In this document: positions 5,222 through 63,068 of the stretch, one piece after another | Numbering within the stretch: position 1 is the stretch's first letter | Layout: every line of letters starts with the position of its first letter | Origin: Acholeplasmatales bacterium | GTDB taxonomy: Bacteria; Bacillota_I; Bacilli_A; Acholeplasmatales; Acholeplasmataceae | Length of the DNA: 64,000 nucleotides | Direction of reading: 5' to 3' | Assembly: GCA_031284585.1 (NCBI GenBank) | Contig: JAITXT010000028.1 | Coordinates: 1 to 64,000, forward strand | Position numbers and translations under genes: made by a program | The notes under the pieces: generated by a model | Databases searched by the model: none | The model's input: the letters and a program-made list of their open reading frames with translations, nothing else | Told to the model about the DNA's origin: nothing

Positions 5222-5344
5222 TTTATTTGAATAATAGTTTTATTGAAACTATTTTATTTAGCTAAATATTACATAAAATCGCGTTGAAATTTAGGACAAT
5301 TAAAATTTATTTATAAATATTATCATGTTTTTACCTTTAAGGAG

Positions 5345-5350
5345 TATAAT
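5345..5350 (+). promoter_or_regulatory. -10 element of the ATP-grasp/tatD/htrA operon
   Basis: A perfect TATAAT lies 25 nt before the start of the ATP-grasp gene, and a strong AGGGGG ribosome site lies between them. No convincing -35 is seen, so the promoter is only partly supported. Confidence 0.45.
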
Positions 5351-5374
5351 TTAAAGATAAATAGGGGGTCTTAA

Positions 5375-6568
5375 ATGATTTTTGTATTTATATCACCAAA
5401 TTTTCCAGATAATTATTATAATTTTGTAGTATCTTTAAAAGAAAGAGGAGTTAAAGTGATCGGTATCGGAGATACTAGTTTTCTAAACCTTAGAGAAGAA
5501 CTAAAAGCTTCACTAGAAGAATACGTTCAAACTGATTTGAATAACTATCTTTATGTTAAAAATACTATTGATTATATTTACAAGAAATATGGATTTATTG
5601 ATTTTATCGAATCTAATAATGAGTATTGGTTAGAACTAGATGCTAAATTAAGAACTCAATTCAACGTATCTAGTGGTTTAAAAATAGATGAATTAGAAAA
5701 AATAAAAAGAAAATCTAGAATGAAAGAATGTTTTTTAAATGCAAATATTAAAGTACCTCGTTATATTTTGCCAAGAGATTTAGATGCAGCAATCCAATTT
5801 GTTAACGAAGTTGGTTTCCCTGTTTTTGTAAAACCAGATATTGGTGTTGGAGCTCAAGATAGTCATTCTATTAAAAATCATAGAGAATTAGAACTATTTT
5901 TTATTGGGAATCCTTATCCAAATCGGTTTATTATGGAAGAGTTTGTAGATGGGGATTTAATAAGTTTCGATGGGATTGCAGATAATGAATCTAACGCCTT
6001 ATTTTGTATTAAAGAATGTTTTAAGTACCCAGGAGAAAGAGTAATAAATGAAGATTTAGATGATAGTTATTATTCAGATCCTTTTCTTGACACTGATTTT
6101 GTAGAAATAGGAAAGAGAATTATTAAATCTTTTAATGTAAAAAAAAGATATTTTCATATTGAGTTATTTGTCCTAAAGAAAGATAAAGAGGGTTTAGGGA
6201 AGAAAAAAGATATCATTGGTTTAGAGGTAAACATGCGTTCTCCAGGTGGAAATACGGTTCTACTAATAAACAAAGCATCTGGTGTTTCAACATATGACTT
6301 ATATGCCGATATTATAACTACTAATACTTGTAGTATTGATTCAAACAGAAAGAAATGCTATGCTATTTCTAGTAGTAGAAAAGATCATTATAATTATATT
6401 AATTCAGTAGAAGATATTTTCTCAAAATATGAGGAAAATATATTTTCTTATGGAACATATCCAAAAGAGATTTCAAAAATGATGGGAGATACTTATTTTT
6501 ATGCATCTTTTGAAACTTTAAAAGATCTCAATGAATTTGATGAATTTGTTAGGAAAAAAGTTAAATGA
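5375..6568 (+). CDS. ATP-grasp ligase, carbamoyl-phosphate-synthase-like
   Basis: 397 residues. The N-terminal third forms a Rossmann-like pre-ATP-grasp domain. The ATP-grasp fold follows, with KIKRKSRMKECFLNANIKVP near residue 110, the lysine-bearing strand FPVFVKPDIGVGAQ (about 148-161), the hinge IMEEFVDGDLISFDG and the metal-binding LEVNMRSPGGN (about 288-298). Such enzymes join a carboxylate to an amine or thiol via an acyl-phosphate. Substrates cannot be read from the sequence; homologues act in dipeptide, amino-acid or natural-product ligations. The stop overlaps the next start (ATGA), placing it first in a five-gene coupled operon. Confidence 0.82.
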   Translation: MIFVFISPNFPDNYYNFVVSLKERGVKVIGIGDTSFLNLREELKASLEEYVQTDLNNYLYVKNTIDYIYKKYGFIDFIESNNEYWLELDAKLRTQFNVSSGLKIDELEKIKRKSRMKECFLNANIKVPRYILPRDLDAAIQFVNEVGFPVFVKPDIGVGAQDSHSIKNHRELELFFIGNPYPNRFIMEEFVDGDLISFDGIADNESNALFCIKECFKYPGERVINEDLDDSYYSDPFLDTDFVEIGKRIIKSFNVKKRYFHIELFVLKKDKEGLGKKKDIIGLEVNMRSPGGNTVLLINKASGVSTYDLYADIITTNTCSIDSNRKKCYAISSSRKDHYNYINSVEDIFSKYEENIFSYGTYPKEISKMMGDTYFYASFETLKDLNEFDEFVRKKVK

Positions 6569-8881: not shown

Positions 8882-9688
8882 ATGATTAAATTATTTGAAA
8901 ATGTACCATTTTTACAGAAAGATTATAATAACATTGAAAACTTGGATGCTCCATCGATTAATGAATATATTATAGGAGATGCTAATCATAGACTACCTAC
9001 AATTTTAGTTGTACCAGGTGGGGGATATGTTAGAAAAAGTGATGCGGAAGGAGAACCATTTGCGAAATGGTTAAATGATAACGGCTATAACGCTTTTGTC
9101 CTAAATTACCGAGTATTTCCTTATAATTATCCCGTTCCACTTATAGATATTATAAGAGCTATTAAATATATTAAATATTATAGTGCTCAATTTGGAGTAG
9201 ATGTTAATAATATCGGCGTAATGGGTTTCTCGGCTGGAGCTCACTTATGCAGTTTATTAGGAGAAACTGTTAAAATTGATAGTTTTTATAAAACAAACGA
9301 TAAAATTGATGAAATGACATTTGATGTTTCTTTTTGTATTTTATGTTATCCTGTTATTTCTATGGAGAAAAAATATAGACATGAAGGTAGTTATAAAGCA
9401 TTTCTACCAAATATAAAGAGTAATTATTACATTAATAAATTATCTACTTATAAACATATAGGAGCAAATTTCCCTAAAACTTTCATTTGGCATACTAAAG
9501 AAGATAATTCAGTACCTTATTATAATTCAGTATTATTTGTGGATAGATTAAAAGAATTAGGAATTTATCATGAATTTTATTTATATGAAAAAGGTGCTCA
9601 TGGTCTAAAATTTGCACTTGATGTACCAGGAACAAAAGAGTGGTCTTTAAGATGTTTGGAGTTTATTAAAAAAGTTATTAATAAATAA
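8882..9688 (+). CDS. Alpha/beta-hydrolase, acetyl-esterase/BD-FAE-like
   Basis: 268 residues with the layout of small cytoplasmic carbohydrate esterases (Aes/BD-FAE). The oxyanion loop is VPGGGYVRKS (about 45-54), the nucleophile elbow GFSAGAH (about 117-123), the acid is probably in KEDNSVPY, and the histidine in EKGAHGL (about 240). There is no signal peptide, so the substrate would be imported or intracellular. It starts 1 nt after the pncC stop and ends the operon. Natural substrate unknown; deacetylation of sugars or xylo-oligosaccharides is typical of the family. Confidence 0.85.
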   Translation: MIKLFENVPFLQKDYNNIENLDAPSINEYIIGDANHRLPTILVVPGGGYVRKSDAEGEPFAKWLNDNGYNAFVLNYRVFPYNYPVPLIDIIRAIKYIKYYSAQFGVDVNNIGVMGFSAGAHLCSLLGETVKIDSFYKTNDKIDEMTFDVSFCILCYPVISMEKKYRHEGSYKAFLPNIKSNYYINKLSTYKHIGANFPKTFIWHTKEDNSVPYYNSVLFVDRLKELGIYHEFYLYEKGAHGLKFALDVPGTKEWSLRCLEFIKKVINK

Positions 9689-58846: not shown

Positions 58847-58900
58847 ATGAAGTTATTTTTAAAATTATATGGGAATAAAATATTAGTAAAGATTTTATGA
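58847..58900 (+). CDS. 17-residue leader ORF coupled to the lipoprotein gene
   Basis: ATG AAG TTA through TTA TGA encodes MKLFLKLYGNKILVKIL. A good ribosome site (AAAAAGGGG, about 58833-58841) lies 5-6 nt upstream, while the lipoprotein gene itself has no ribosome site. The stop TGA overlaps the lipoprotein start (ATGA at 58897-58900), the classic geometry of translational coupling. The peptide is basic and hydrophobic. It is either a coupling leader or a regulatory (attenuating) peptide. It has not been seen to be longer or to share sequence with the other genes. Confidence 0.5.
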   Translation: MKLFLKLYGNKILVKIL

Positions 58901-59700
58901 AAAAGAAGATTTTTTTACTCACGGTTTCCTTTTTCTTTGTATTTGTTCTTTCAAGTTGTGAATTTTTTTTCTCTGACAAAATAACACACAAGAGAAATTC
59001 TATTTGGAAAGACGAAAATGACATACTTAGTTTTAAAATAATAGGTTTTCAAGATCAGAGTGGTAATGGTACCATTGTAATTAAAAATGAAACTTACGAT
59101 GTGAATTGTTATTTCACTCGCAATGTACTATTTATAGTATTTATTGATGATGCACCAACACCGAGACTACTAAAGACTGGTGTTGATGGTACAATTACAT
59201 TTGTAAAAAATAATTTTAAATACGTAGAAAATCAAATTAAGGTAGATATTGATTTTTTTTTATCTGAAGATGAAGGAATTTATATGCCTCTTGTCTTATT
59301 TAACGAAAAGTTACCTGATTCAGAAATAGATGCAAAAAAAATGTTTGATTGTACATTTACTAGTGAATTTATTGAATTTTATTCTGTAGATCTCAAAGTA
59401 ACAAAGGGAAAATTAATAATGTTATATTCGAGATATTGTAATAAATCATTTTCATTTTATGGAATAAATAGAACTAATGATAGTTTAATTAAAGTAATAT
59501 TTGAAGATAATAGACTTACTATTTACAATATTGATGAAAAAGGAGAAATAACTTCAATTTTACTAAGTGGAACATATACAACTAAAGTTAATGTTGATCA
59601 AATGACGTTTAAATTAGATCCTTTATTTACTATTAATGATAGTTCTGAAGATATTATTTTCAATATACATAATTTTGGCGAGAGTTTTCCATATGAATAA
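58897..59700 (+). CDS. Lipoprotein, paralogue of the 61499 protein
   Basis: 267 residues. The signal peptide ends in LSSC (Cys21), so the mature protein is lipid-anchored outside. The rest is beta-rich: GTIVIKNETYDVNCYF, then DAPTPRLLKTGVDGTITF and IKVIFEDNRLTIYNIDEKG. These blocks recur in order in the protein at 61499: DAPTNELL, then DCYFTS for DCTFTS, IKVYFQENNKVSIYIVDKNG, and LLSGTYKTSIN for LLSGTYTTKVN. No known family. It has no ribosome site of its own and appears coupled to the 17-codon leader. AT content is higher than in the housekeeping genes. Confidence 0.8.
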   Translation: MKKKIFLLTVSFFFVFVLSSCEFFFSDKITHKRNSIWKDENDILSFKIIGFQDQSGNGTIVIKNETYDVNCYFTRNVLFIVFIDDAPTPRLLKTGVDGTITFVKNNFKYVENQIKVDIDFFLSEDEGIYMPLVLFNEKLPDSEIDAKKMFDCTFTSEFIEFYSVDLKVTKGKLIMLYSRYCNKSFSFYGINRTNDSLIKVIFEDNRLTIYNIDEKGEITSILLSGTYTTKVNVDQMTFKLDPLFTINDSSEDIIFNIHNFGESFPYE

Positions 59701-59768
59701 GGTTAATTCATAAATATTTCCGACTTTAATTATGTTTATTTTCAATTAAAATAACATTTTTACATTAA

Positions 59769-59799
59769 TTTACAAATTATCTAATTAATACGTTATATT
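59769..59799 (+). promoter_or_regulatory. Promoter candidate for the 59823 gene
   Basis: TTTACA (59769-59774) and TATATT (59794-59799) are spaced by 19 nt, one or two mismatches from consensus. GGAGGGGG lies between it and the start at 59823. Confidence 0.4.
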
Positions 59800-59822
59800 A
59801 AAGTTAAAGATTGGAGGGGGTC

Positions 59823-60491
59823 ATGAAAAAGTATTTTTTATTTTTATCAATTTGTTTTATTTCCATTTTAGCAGTTTCTATAAACGGTTTCATTTTTAGT
59901 TATAGCTTTCCACTTGAACGAGAGCTTGTAACAGGTTGGGAAAATGATAAAAAAGCATGTAAAGAATATCTTAATTCATTTTCTGAAGTTAAATTAATTG
60001 AAACTGAAACAAGAACAGTTTATTCATCTCAGACAAATGCTAGAAATATTTATGGATATAATAATCTCGAACTTAGTTCTGAGATTCAAAACTCAACAGT
60101 AATATACGAAGCCAACTATATTAGTGGGATTAATGTCATTTATGTAGACGTTAGTCTCGTTAATAGTGATAGCGGTGAAGTTATAGATCACTTAAAGTAC
60201 ATTGGTTATGGATTTACTAATGATCAGGGGAAAAAGGATATAACTTTTGATCATGGTGGTCTTCAATTTTTAGGATCAAATGTACTTTCAATCGACATCG
60301 ATAATACGAAATCCATAAATTCATCGATTAATTTTGGAGATTTTGGAGATTTTGGCGATGATAATGGAGGTCGTTTTTTACTCCCATCCATCTATATTAG
60401 TGTCGCTATTGTTGGATTATCTACTGCTGATAGAATCTCTGCTGCGATCATAACCGCCCCAATTTATTTGTTCATGGCCCATTACCAGTAA
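59823..60491 (+). CDS. Secreted or membrane protein with Gly-Gly and hydrophobic tail
   Basis: 222 residues from the ATG at 59823, with a very strong ribosome site GGAGGGGG 2-3 nt closer than a TTG at 59811 would allow. Residues 4-28 are a signal or anchor helix. Residues 30-165 are polar and beta-rich. Then comes a GDFGDFGDD repeat (172-180), NGG (181-183) and a 39-residue hydrophobic tail (RFLLPSIYISVAIVGLSTAD and on) with one or two helices. No family recognised. It lies 8 nt before the predicted cysteine protease gene, so the two are coupled. The Gly-Gly before a hydrophobic segment resembles a C39 leader site, but here it is near the C-terminus. Confidence 0.68.
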   Translation: MKKYFLFLSICFISILAVSINGFIFSYSFPLERELVTGWENDKKACKEYLNSFSEVKLIETETRTVYSSQTNARNIYGYNNLELSSEIQNSTVIYEANYISGINVIYVDVSLVNSDSGEVIDHLKYIGYGFTNDQGKKDITFDHGGLQFLGSNVLSIDIDNTKSINSSINFGDFGDFGDDNGGRFLLPSIYISVAIVGLSTADRISAAIITAPIYLFMAHYQ

Positions 60492-60499
60492 TTTATCAC

Positions 60500-61381
60500 A
60501 TGGCAAAAATGCTAATTATTGAAAATGGATTTAATAAAAATTCTCAAAATACTCCAGTAAGCGGTTATATAAATGATCAAAATAATAGGAAATGGGAAGA
60601 TTGGGATTTCGGTTTAACTACTATGAAGAATGCAGGATGTGGTGTAATATCAATTTACAATTTTTTATATTCAACAGGAACTCAAGTTGATTTGGCAACT
60701 TTAATTGCTTTGGTACAATATTCAAACGCGGATCTATTGCTTGGCTATTTTGGTACAAATCCTATACCTGAGGATTTAATGTTTATTGGTTCAAACTTAA
60801 TATTTACTCTTTTCAATATAATTGCTTACCCGATTATTATAGAGATTGTCATTCCAGTAGTAGCGGGTTTAATAGTTGCTTTGGAGATTGGACTACTTAG
60901 TTGGTTCTACCAAATTTTTTTATGGCCAAATTATCCAGCTTTAGTCCTTGGTGTTTCATCGGTTTTGCAAATCGCTTTTTCAGTTGCGATTTTTAGTATT
61001 GAAACTTTCGTCAGTTACTATTTTTGGCAACTTAACGACATTACGGATGTATTAGGCTTATATGGTGTTAACAATAGTTTAACTTCATATTGGCCACTTA
61101 ATGACTTTACTAGTTTTGAACAAGGAGCAGCTCTTCAAAGTAAATATATTATTTTAACTTTTTTCAATGAACTTTCCTCAGATGGAAATATAAATATAGA
61201 AAAAGGAATCCATACAATATTTATTTATTATGACCCAATTACAAATAAATATTACGGATATAATAATGGTTATGGAGTCGAAATCCACTCTGATTTGTGG
61301 CAATTTATGAGTTATTACAATACTTATTCAAAAAACGATTCGAAGAAGTTATTCGTTTCTGGAATAGCTGTTATACAATAA
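60500..61381 (+). CDS. Predicted papain/C39-like cysteine protease with inserted membrane helices
   Basis: 293 residues. NAGCGVISIYNFL holds Cys47 at the start of a helix, as in C39/papain-like folds, and GIHTIFIYYD (His238) with NKYYGYNNG (Asn255) follows in the C-terminal half in the usual order for the His and Asn/Asp. Between them, residues 96-176 form about three membrane helices, so the protease would be embedded in or pinned to the membrane. There is no signal peptide. No ribosome site is visible; the start is 8 nt after the previous stop, so translation is coupled. A hairpin terminator overlaps its 3' end. The family is not identified and activity is inferred from residue order alone. 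Confidence 0.55.
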   Translation: MAKMLIIENGFNKNSQNTPVSGYINDQNNRKWEDWDFGLTTMKNAGCGVISIYNFLYSTGTQVDLATLIALVQYSNADLLLGYFGTNPIPEDLMFIGSNLIFTLFNIIAYPIIIEIVIPVVAGLIVALEIGLLSWFYQIFLWPNYPALVLGVSSVLQIAFSVAIFSIETFVSYYFWQLNDITDVLGLYGVNNSLTSYWPLNDFTSFEQGAALQSKYIILTFFNELSSDGNINIEKGIHTIFIYYDPITNKYYGYNNGYGVEIHSDLWQFMSYYNTYSKNDSKKLFVSGIAVIQ

Positions 61382-61406
61382 TTCATAAGAATTTATTGTT
61401 TTTTTT
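61376..61406 (+). terminator. Terminator overlapping the 3' end of the cysteine-protease-like gene
   Basis: CAATAATTC (61376-61384) pairs with GAAtTTATTG (one bulged T, ending 61398) around ATAA. A run of eight T follows. The stem begins inside the last codons. It splits the cassette into two transcription units. Confidence 0.6.
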
Positions 61407-61498
61407 ACTTAATTAAAACTATTATTAGAAAGTTAATTTTTATATAAAAATTAAACTTAAATATTTCAGAATAAAAAAAAGATTAAAGAGGTATTAAC

Positions 61499-62365
61499 AT
61501 GTTATCAAAATTACTTAGCAAAAAAAAACTAAAAAAGGCATTAATGGTATTAACTACAATTTATGTTCTTTTCTTAAGTGTTTTTTTTATTATAAGTTTT
61601 TTTAAAACAGAGAATCATGAAATGTTAAACGATTTTTCTAATGTCTTATTAGTTGATGAAAATAAAATTTTAGAAATATATATATCAGGACCAAATAATT
61701 ATAGCGGTTTTGGAGAAATAAATATTAAAGAAAATGCATATAAAATATACTGGATTATTTCAGAAGGAAAAAACAGAAAAATACATTTAGAATTTATTAA
61801 AGACGCTCCTACAAATGAACTGCTAAATAAAGGATTGGATTTCAAGTTTTTATTAGAAAGCAATATATTAACAAGTCGCAAAAAAACATTAACTGTCACA
61901 GGAACAATAAAGCTACAATCAAAAGAAAGAATTAAAATTAATTTAAGTTTAAGTATTTATAGTCTAGATGACGCAGATATAAATTCTAAAAATATGGTAG
62001 ATTGCTATTTTACTAGCAATAGCGGAATATCATTTTATACCACGAGTTTAGGAATAAACAAAAGAAAACTAAAAAAAATTAATTCTCTTAATTCTTATCA
62101 ATTCTTATCTTACTATGGAACAAATTCAAAAGATTCAAATAATTTCATAAAAGTATATTTTCAAGAAAATAATAAAGTAAGTATTTATATAGTTGACAAA
62201 AATGGTAATATAATTGATTCTTTACTAAGTGGTACTTATAAGACAAGTATTAATATTCCTGAAATGATAATCTCATTAGATGAAAATACCACACTAAATG
62301 GTAACAAAAAAGATATCATTTTTGATATTAGTCCAATAACTAGTAAAACAACTTATAATCTCTAA
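61499..62365 (+). CDS. Membrane-anchored paralogue of the 58897 lipoprotein
   Basis: 288 residues. The N-terminus (SKKKLKKALMVL) is a basic head plus one helix (about 12-33) with no lipobox, so it is a membrane-anchored form. The rest aligns by eye with the lipoprotein at 58897: DAPTNELLNKGLDF, DINSKNMVDCYFTS, SYYGTNSKDSNNFIKVYF, VDKNGNI and LLSGTYKTSINIPEMIISLD. No known domain. AAGAGG lies upstream. Its stop shares one base with the start of the serine protease gene, so the two are coupled. Confidence 0.78.
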   Translation: MLSKLLSKKKLKKALMVLTTIYVLFLSVFFIISFFKTENHEMLNDFSNVLLVDENKILEIYISGPNNYSGFGEINIKENAYKIYWIISEGKNRKIHLEFIKDAPTNELLNKGLDFKFLLESNILTSRKKTLTVTGTIKLQSKERIKINLSLSIYSLDDADINSKNMVDCYFTSNSGISFYTTSLGINKRKLKKINSLNSYQFLSYYGTNSKDSNNFIKVYFQENNKVSIYIVDKNGNIIDSLLSGTYKTSINIPEMIISLDENTTLNGNKKDIIFDISPITSKTTYNL

Positions 62366-63068
62366 TGAAAAAAATACATATAATAAATATAACACTAAAC
62401 ATAATAACATTTTTGGGAATTTCTAGTTTAATTTTTTTTAATAAATTCTATTCTGCTGATAGCATTTTTGATCGCTCTATTCATTCTGTTTTTGAAGTAA
62501 AATGCGAAACTGAGGGAGATATATCGTATGGATCAGCTGTAGCATTTGAAAAAGATTTATTGGTTACAAATTTTCATGTAATTTCTTATAATACTACAAC
62601 AACAAGGAAAATCCATGATTTCATAATGCTTAGGAGCCCTTTTAGCAATGATTATTTTGAATGTACTGTAAAAACATACGATGAAAATAACGATATTGCT
62701 ATTTTAGAGAAAATGAGTTCGGTAAAATTAGAAATTAAAACAATTAAAACAGCCAAAAAAAATTCGAAACCGGGAGAAAAATGTTTTGCAATCGGAAATG
62801 CAAATAATTTAGGAATAGGTATTACAGAAGGAAATATCGTAAATAATTCCGTTAGTATAAAAATTAATGACTTTTCTAGAAAAATGATTCAAGCAAACGT
62901 TACGTCGAGTAATGGTTCAAGCGGTGGTGCTTTATTAAATAAAAAGGGTGAATTAATAGGAATAACTACTCTTAAACTAGTTGATAGTTATGGATTATTA
63001 TAGAGGGTTACATTTATTCCTTTCCAATTAATTTAGTATTTAATTTACTAGAATTAGATTCAAATTGA
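62365..63068 (+). pseudogene. Trypsin-like serine protease (HtrA type), frameshifted near the end
   Basis: The uninterrupted part (62365-63003) gives 212 residues: a membrane helix (10-27), then His71 (TNFHVI), Asp110 (NNDIAIL) and Ser186 (GSSGGALLN), the full triad. It stops at TAG 63001 after LVDSYGLL. In the -1 frame the codons from 63003 to 63068 read EGYIYSFPINLVFNLLELDSN and then stop. This matches the closing strand and helix of HtrA-like proteases (GxAYSxPIN type), so a one-base loss near 62995-63002 is likely, either in the genome or in the assembly. No clear slippery heptamer is present. With no PDZ domain it is shorter than the 7328 protease. No ribosome site; coupled to 61499. Confidence 0.75.

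What the first reader, a model, noticed from the sequence alone, without database searches (positions are those of the whole stretch)
58847..63068. Candidate undescribed envelope cassette: paralogous anchored proteins plus a cysteine and a serine protease
Between hup and a PNPOx-like gene, five coding regions share no recognised family but form a clear set. There is a lipoprotein and its membrane-anchored paralogue, a secreted protein with a Gly-Gly and hydrophobic tail, a C39/papain-like protein with inserted membrane helices, and a trypsin-like protease. The order is doubled: (envelope paralogue, then substrate-like protein plus protease) and (envelope paralogue plus protease). All neighbours are housekeeping. 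The pattern suggests peptide maturation or surface proteolysis, perhaps with self-protection. The genes and motifs are seen; the system is inferred.
Basis: partly seen in the sequence, partly recalled or inferred. Interest (0 to 1): 0.72.

Follow-up and report, generated by a model that had tools for sequence, protein, structure and literature searches.

The report
Modular secreted effector operon with lipoprotein partner
A bacterium of the Acholeplasma group carries a small operon that makes a secreted papain-like enzyme, a membrane lipoprotein that probably protects its owner from it, and a serine protease that probably releases it; the same parts recur, are swapped and decay across many bacteria in the way of toxin-immunity weapons.

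Summary
The real unit is a four-part operon: secreted domain X (59823-60491), papain/C39-like domain (60500-61381), lipoprotein-family protein (61499-62365), HtrA-type serine protease without PDZ (62365-63003). The gene at 58897 is an extra, probably orphan, copy of the lipoprotein family; the order is not doubled. In Acholeplasmataceae and other Bacilli, X and the C39-like domain are one secreted protein followed by lipoprotein and HtrA. A second, divergent copy lies in the same genome across a contig gap. The C39-like domain (invariant Gln, Cys, His, Asn; no Pfam family) also ends Rhs, TSP3-type and CBM surface proteins, with a lipoprotein of an unrelated family directly downstream. One relative carries X with a different C-terminus (DUF4474), a different lipoprotein (DUF5104) and the same HtrA. 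Between two related operons the effector's C-terminus and most of the adjacent lipoprotein are replaced together (46% DNA identity) between flanks of 83% and 93%. Best reading: a polymorphic-toxin-like secreted effector with lipoprotein immunity and a releasing protease. Toxicity, immunity and cleavage are inferred, not shown. The window copy looks damaged: X and C39 lie in different frames and the HtrA gene is frame-shifted.

The parts
58847..58900 (+). 17-codon ORF whose TGA overlaps the ATG of the next gene (ATGA); possible translational coupling
   Evidence: sequence
58897..59700 (+). Extra copy of the lipoprotein family, lipobox VLSSC; candidate orphan immunity/inhibitor gene
   Evidence: 35% identical to 61499 product; solo members in seven relatives
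59823..60491 (+). Domain X: signal peptide, alpha/beta domain, Gly-rich linker; N-terminal half of the secreted effector (mechanical ORF start 59811)
   Evidence: fused to the C39-like domain in G023, G024, L066, L075; good Shine-Dalgarno GGAGGGGG
60500..61381 (+). C39/papain-like domain, Gln27-Cys47-His238-Asn255, with ~85-aa hydrophobic insert (about residues 95-173); candidate effector domain
   Evidence: invariant residues in 13 diverse relatives; hhalign to a Peptidase_C39_2 alignment with Cys and His in register
61499..62365 (+). Cognate lipoprotein-family protein (membrane anchor, no lipobox Cys); candidate immunity/inhibitor
   Evidence: position conserved directly downstream of the C39-like domain
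62365..63003 (+). HtrA/DegS-type serine protease, one N-terminal TM, triad His71-Asp110-Ser186, no PDZ; truncated here by a frame slip near 62990
   Evidence: TAATG overlap with the previous gene
62314..62440 (+). 127 bp repeated at 94% in contig C7:308-434 next to a tRNA-like gene: remnant of another cassette copy

Best explanation
The cassette is a modular, polymorphic-toxin-like secreted effector operon. Sec exports a protein made of constant domain X and an exchangeable C-terminal enzyme domain, here a papain/C39-like cysteine peptidase. The membrane-anchored HtrA-type protease, with its catalytic domain outside, cuts the Gly-rich linker and releases or activates the enzyme. The lipoprotein on the producer's own surface binds that enzyme and protects the producer; extra and orphan lipoprotein genes extend protection to other variants. 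Shown by sequence: operon structure, X-C39 fusion, catalytic residues, swapping of effector domain and lipoprotein, joint replacement block. Inferred: toxicity, immunity, cleavage site, target.
For: Order effector-lipoprotein-HtrA in G023, G024, L066, L069, G018 contig C2 and G315; order effector-HtrA-lipoprotein in G251; a second own-genome copy split between C9 end and C1 start. Within the family X and the C39-like domain were found only in cassettes. The C39-like domain is at the C-terminus of a 2,357-aa Rhs protein (Rhs_assc_core 1.5e-19), and of TSP3- and CBM2-bearing proteins, followed by lipoproteins of at least three further unrelated families, tandem in L067 and L068. X is fused to DUF4474 with a DUF5104 lipoprotein and HtrA in G008 (X homology z=28). 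G023 vs G024: 83% / 46% / 93% DNA identity, the low block running from the effector's last ~50 residues to lipoprotein residue ~171, LR 472 against a null maximum of 99; G018's two copies show 99% / 66% / 91%. Between G023 and G024 the lipoprotein is 51% identical but HtrA 94%. Decayed copies: C7, G077, G027, G018 C102.
Against: No activity data. The lipoprotein's C-terminal third is conserved across the swapped block, so it is not a clean whole-gene swap; surface antigenic variation could give joint divergence of two surface proteins. Most known immunity proteins are cytoplasmic (PMC3482391). The papain fold is not confirmed by structure: model pLDDT 61, no Foldseek match with E<=0.001. Some C39-like domains are standalone without a lipoprotein (L070, L072, L090-L093), and L071 is exported without one. 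In the window and C9 the C39 half lacks its own signal peptide.
Confidence: 0.55

Rival explanations
1. A secreted cysteine-protease operon for feeding or host-protein cleavage, working like staphylococcal sspABC: X is a propeptide, the HtrA-type protease is the activating serine protease, the lipoprotein is the staphostatin-like inhibitor that protects the producer.
For: Same three functions side by side as in sspABC (V8 protease, staphopain B, staphostatin B; PMC4490255); Bacteroides C10 proteases are co-transcribed with exported, partly lipoprotein inhibitors (PMC3462683).
Against: X also carries DUF4474, so it is not a papain-specific propeptide; the C39-like domain rides on Rhs and TSP3 carriers; joint replacement of effector end and lipoprotein.
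Confidence: 0.25
2. Surface antigen/protease set: lipoprotein and effector tail diversify under selection by predators, phage or host, and the proteases only do quality control.
For: Both diversify; lipoprotein paralogues exist alone in relatives.
Against: Coupling of lipoprotein position to the exported C39-like domain even when the lipoprotein family is unrelated; invariant catalytic residues.
Confidence: 0.1
3. Peptide (bacteriocin) maturation: X is a precursor with a hydrophobic C-terminal peptide, matured by the C39-like protein.
For: Gly-Gly followed by hydrophobic tail in the window and C9 X proteins.
Against: The tail corresponds to a linker inside a fused protein in relatives; no ABC transporter in the cassette; tails not conserved.
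Confidence: 0.05
4. Relative of the mycoplasma MIB-MIP immunoglobulin-cleaving pair (recalled from general knowledge).
For: Tandem lipoprotein paralogues next to a serine protease.
Against: No MIB or MIP family match; DUF31 only at E=0.94, not over cut-off; serine protease is DegS-like.
Confidence: 0.02

Closest known systems
Polymorphic toxin systems, especially Tox-PLC39 (Zhang et al. 2012, PMC3482391)
   Same: Modular secreted protein, C-terminal papain/C39-like domain, Rhs carriers, adjacent partner gene, joint exchange, orphan partner copies
   Different: Asn rather than Asp as third residue; new carrier domain X; partner is a surface lipoprotein (listed immunity proteins are nearly all cytoplasmic; none listed for Tox-PLC39); dedicated HtrA gene in the operon
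S. aureus sspABC (staphopain B / staphostatin B / V8)
   Same: Cysteine protease, serine protease and inhibitor-like gene in one operon
   Different: Staphostatin is cytoplasmic; exchange of the enzyme domain on a constant N-terminus is not described for it in the papers read
Bacteroides C10 proteases with Bfi/Bti inhibitors (PMC3462683)
   Same: Exported papain-like protease beside an exported, often lipoprotein inhibitor
   Different: Different protease family; no HtrA partner described there; no carrier swapping described
HtrA/DegS
   Same: Membrane-anchored trypsin-like domain with conserved triad
   Different: No PDZ domain; gene fixed in the effector operon

Membership tests
Polymorphic toxin system | Constant N-terminal export region with exchangeable C-terminal domains | tested here: met
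   X with C39-like or DUF4474; C39-like on X, Rhs, TSP3, CBM2 carriers
Polymorphic toxin system | Partner gene directly downstream, often duplicated or orphan | tested here: met
   Lipoprotein downstream in nearly every exported case (exception L071; HtrA in between in G251), tandem in L067/L068, extra copy at 58897, solo copies in seven genomes
Polymorphic toxin system | Toxin end and partner exchanged together | tested here: met
   83/46/93% mosaic in G023 vs G024
Polymorphic toxin system | C-terminal domain is toxic and the partner gives immunity | not testable with these tools
   needs expression and competition assays
Papain/C39-like peptidase | Ordered Cys, His, Asn/Asp triad with a Gln before the Cys | tested here: met
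   Invariant Q, C, H, N in 13 relatives
Papain/C39-like peptidase | Detectable relationship or fold match to C39 | tested here: inconclusive
   No Pfam hit; hhalign score 24, P=0.003 against 9-13 in controls, but low probability; Foldseek uninformative
HtrA family | Trypsin_2 domain with His-Asp-Ser triad | tested here: met
HtrA family | C-terminal PDZ domain (typical members) | tested here: not met
   Full-length relatives end at ~234 aa without PDZ
MIB-MIP | MIB and MIP/DUF31 family match | tested here: not met
sspABC-like protease operon | Serine protease activates a cysteine-protease zymogen; third gene inhibits it | not testable with these tools
   gene content compatible; activities unknown

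The most novel reading that the evidence does not exclude
An undescribed class of polymorphic secreted effectors in Bacilli and Clostridia: a new export/processing module (domain X plus a PDZ-less HtrA in the same operon) that carries interchangeable enzyme domains and is neutralised at the cell surface by rapidly evolving lipoproteins, present even in the Acholeplasma group, where bacterial antagonism is little known.
Probability: 0.45. Interest if true: 0.68.

Novelty: new variant of a known kind. Interest (0 to 1): 0.58.

Why it matters
If true, it adds a secretion/processing module, a papain-like toxin domain without a Pfam family and several families of surface (lipoprotein) immunity proteins to bacterial conflict systems, and it gives a testable case of bacterial antagonism in the Acholeplasma group, whose members lack a cell wall. 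The mosaic pairs tell which parts of enzyme and lipoprotein should set specificity.

Tried and rejected
Foldseek on the fusion model gave nothing usable. The lipoprotein model was too poor to search (pLDDT 48). Viral, phage and plasmid collections: no relatives. PADLOC: apart from one chance-level hit of X, only generic trypsin-type matches, to the serine protease. The wide X search returned housekeeping noise outside known cassettes, so X is counted only where signal-stripped alignment z-scores support it. Programmed -1 frameshift between X and C39: C9 has an in-phase T_TTA_AAA just before the C39 ATG (chance about 0.07-0.25 for that stretch) but the window copy has none in that stretch; left open. 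(My notebook entry 2 says that no heptamer was in phase; that was a misreading, corrected.) Bacteriocin maturation and MIB-MIP considered and disfavoured.

Full report
Source. The window is G000:C10:1-64000, part of a 1.23 Mb draft genome with 77% completeness. Its family contains a genome titled Acholeplasmataceae bacterium SMBSF03 (L065, the same contig as G024), so the family is taken as Acholeplasmataceae.

Anatomy. Five ORFs lie between an HU-like gene and a PNPOx-like gene. Only the last has a Pfam family (Trypsin_2). 58897 (lipobox) and 61499 (signal anchor) are paralogues, 35% identical. Relatives give the true unit. G023 and G024 carry a single 537/522-aa secreted protein whose N-terminal half matches the product of 59823-60491 and whose C-terminal half matches that of 60500-61381. 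It is followed by a lipoprotein and a 234-aa HtrA-type protease, closely packed, with start/stop overlaps in G024. L066 (Bacillales) has the same order; G315 has it with the effector cut by the contig end; G251 has the last two genes swapped; Clostridia L069 has the same layout with a shorter, insert-free C39-like domain and an unrelated lipoprotein. G018 shows C39-lipoprotein on two contigs, one with HtrA. The window's own genome has a second divergent copy: X, C39 and the start of a lipoprotein at the end of contig C9, and the end of a lipoprotein plus HtrA at the start of C1 (the join is inferred). The 'doubled order' is therefore one unit plus one additional lipoprotein gene.

State of the window copy. 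X and C39 are in different frames. In C9 the -1 frame upstream of the C39 ATG reads FWSDGLIQYIFGNFK, resembling the fused linker IWYDGPMKYFMWKVK, so the split comes from an ancestral fusion. C9 has an in-phase T_TTA_AAA there; the window does not. The serine protease stops at YGLL although the following frame continues the family's C-terminus. Either this copy is decaying or the assembly has small errors; both breaks in one 3-kb unit favour caution.

The enzyme domain. Thirteen divergent domains share invariant Gln, Cys, His and Asn in papain order. The Bacilli forms on X carry an ~85-aa hydrophobic insert that the Clostridia forms lack. Pfam, NCBIfam and PDB sequence searches find nothing. 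Profile comparison with a Peptidase_C39_2 alignment built here aligns Cys with Cys and His with His over about 100 columns, score 24 against 9-13 for shuffled and unrelated controls, but with low probability. The AlphaFold model is too weak (mean pLDDT 61) for a fold match. So it is papain-like by signature; C39 membership is probable but unproved.

Modularity. The same domain ends a 2,357-aa Rhs protein in G485 (RHS repeats, Rhs_assc_core 1.5e-19) and TSP3- or CBM2-containing proteins (L067, L073; the TSP3 matches themselves are weak). In these and in X-carried cases a lipoprotein gene follows. Pairwise z-scores put the lipoproteins into unrelated groups: Bacilli, L068/L069, L067/L073, L076. 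Some lipoproteins are tandem duplicates (L067, L068). In G008, X is fused to DUF4474 (1.8e-15), followed by a DUF5104 lipoprotein (2.9e-19) and HtrA. X homology there is solid (z=28 to L068 X, 8-12 to the two own-genome X proteins). Thus X and HtrA are the constant parts, and enzyme and lipoprotein are the variable parts. Exceptions exist: L068 has no HtrA, L071 is exported but has no lipoprotein downstream, and standalone forms without partners occur (L070, L072, L090-L093).

Joint exchange. Comparing G023 and G024 along the operon, DNA identity is 83% up to the last ~50 residues of the effector, 46% from there to lipoprotein residue ~171, and 93% through the rest and HtrA (likelihood ratio 472, block-shuffled maximum 99). 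The two G018 copies show 99/66/91% (LR 123, null maximum 65). HtrA is 94% and the lipoprotein 51% identical between G023 and G024. This is the pattern expected when effector end and matching partner are replaced together. Decayed copies are frequent: C7 next to a tRNA-like gene, G077, G027, where a C39 C-terminus remnant (SSYSSRNEQFISGIAIKG) precedes the lipoprotein, and G018 C102. The family distribution is patchy: C39-like in 5 and X in 4 of 88 family genomes, lipoprotein family alone in several others.

Mechanism proposed. X carries the enzyme out through Sec (shown: signal peptide). The HtrA-type protease, anchored with its domain outside, cuts the Gly-rich linker (inferred). The papain-like domain acts on neighbouring cells (inferred). 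The lipoprotein binds it at the producer's surface (inferred from position, duplication, swapping and joint divergence).

Relation to the known. Zhang et al. 2012 list a Tox-PLC39 toxin domain with Rhs carriers, a C, H, D signature and no immunity protein, and state that nearly all immunity proteins are cytoplasmic (PMC3482391). This system matches the architecture but differs in carrier, third catalytic residue and lipoprotein partner. The main rival is an sspABC-like protease operon (PMC4490255, PMC3462683), which shares the protective-inhibitor idea but does not explain DUF4474 on the same X or the Rhs carriers.

Limits. No activity, binding or structure is shown. Most relatives are draft metagenome assemblies, several at contig ends. 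Genome sampling was capped, so frequencies are rough.

Noticed in passing
G000:C7:308-434 (L004): 127 bp, 94% identical to window 62314-62440, beside a tRNA-like (Cys anticodon by reading) gene: remnant of a cassette copy.
   Followed up: partly
window 58847-58900: 17-codon ORF with a Shine-Dalgarno-like sequence whose TGA overlaps the lipoprotein ATG; 58897 itself lacks a clear ribosome site.
   Followed up: no
L019 5044-5050: In-phase T_TTA_AAA heptamer directly before the C39 ATG in the second own-genome cassette; possible programmed -1 frameshift making the X-C39 fusion.
   Followed up: partly
L020 2365, 4508, 8007, 9922; L021 about 5318-5524 and 8915-8979: Dispersed intergenic repeats (ATGGGTTG..GACCTATTTTAATACAATTACGCACCC) around the operon in G023 and, on both sides of it, in G024, though the neighbourhoods are otherwise not syntenic.
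   Followed up: partly
L090, L091, L093 (G301, G266, G442) and L083 (G458): Related C39-like domains as ~150-275-aa proteins without signal peptide, three of them near a pseudouridine synthase gene: a likely housekeeping branch of the domain.
   Followed up: no
L104 1841-4038 (G009); L105 1039-3681 (G019): The same short HtrA type next to other secreted proteins (a DUF6973 protein in G009; a Gly-rich protein in G019), perhaps further effector types.
   Followed up: no
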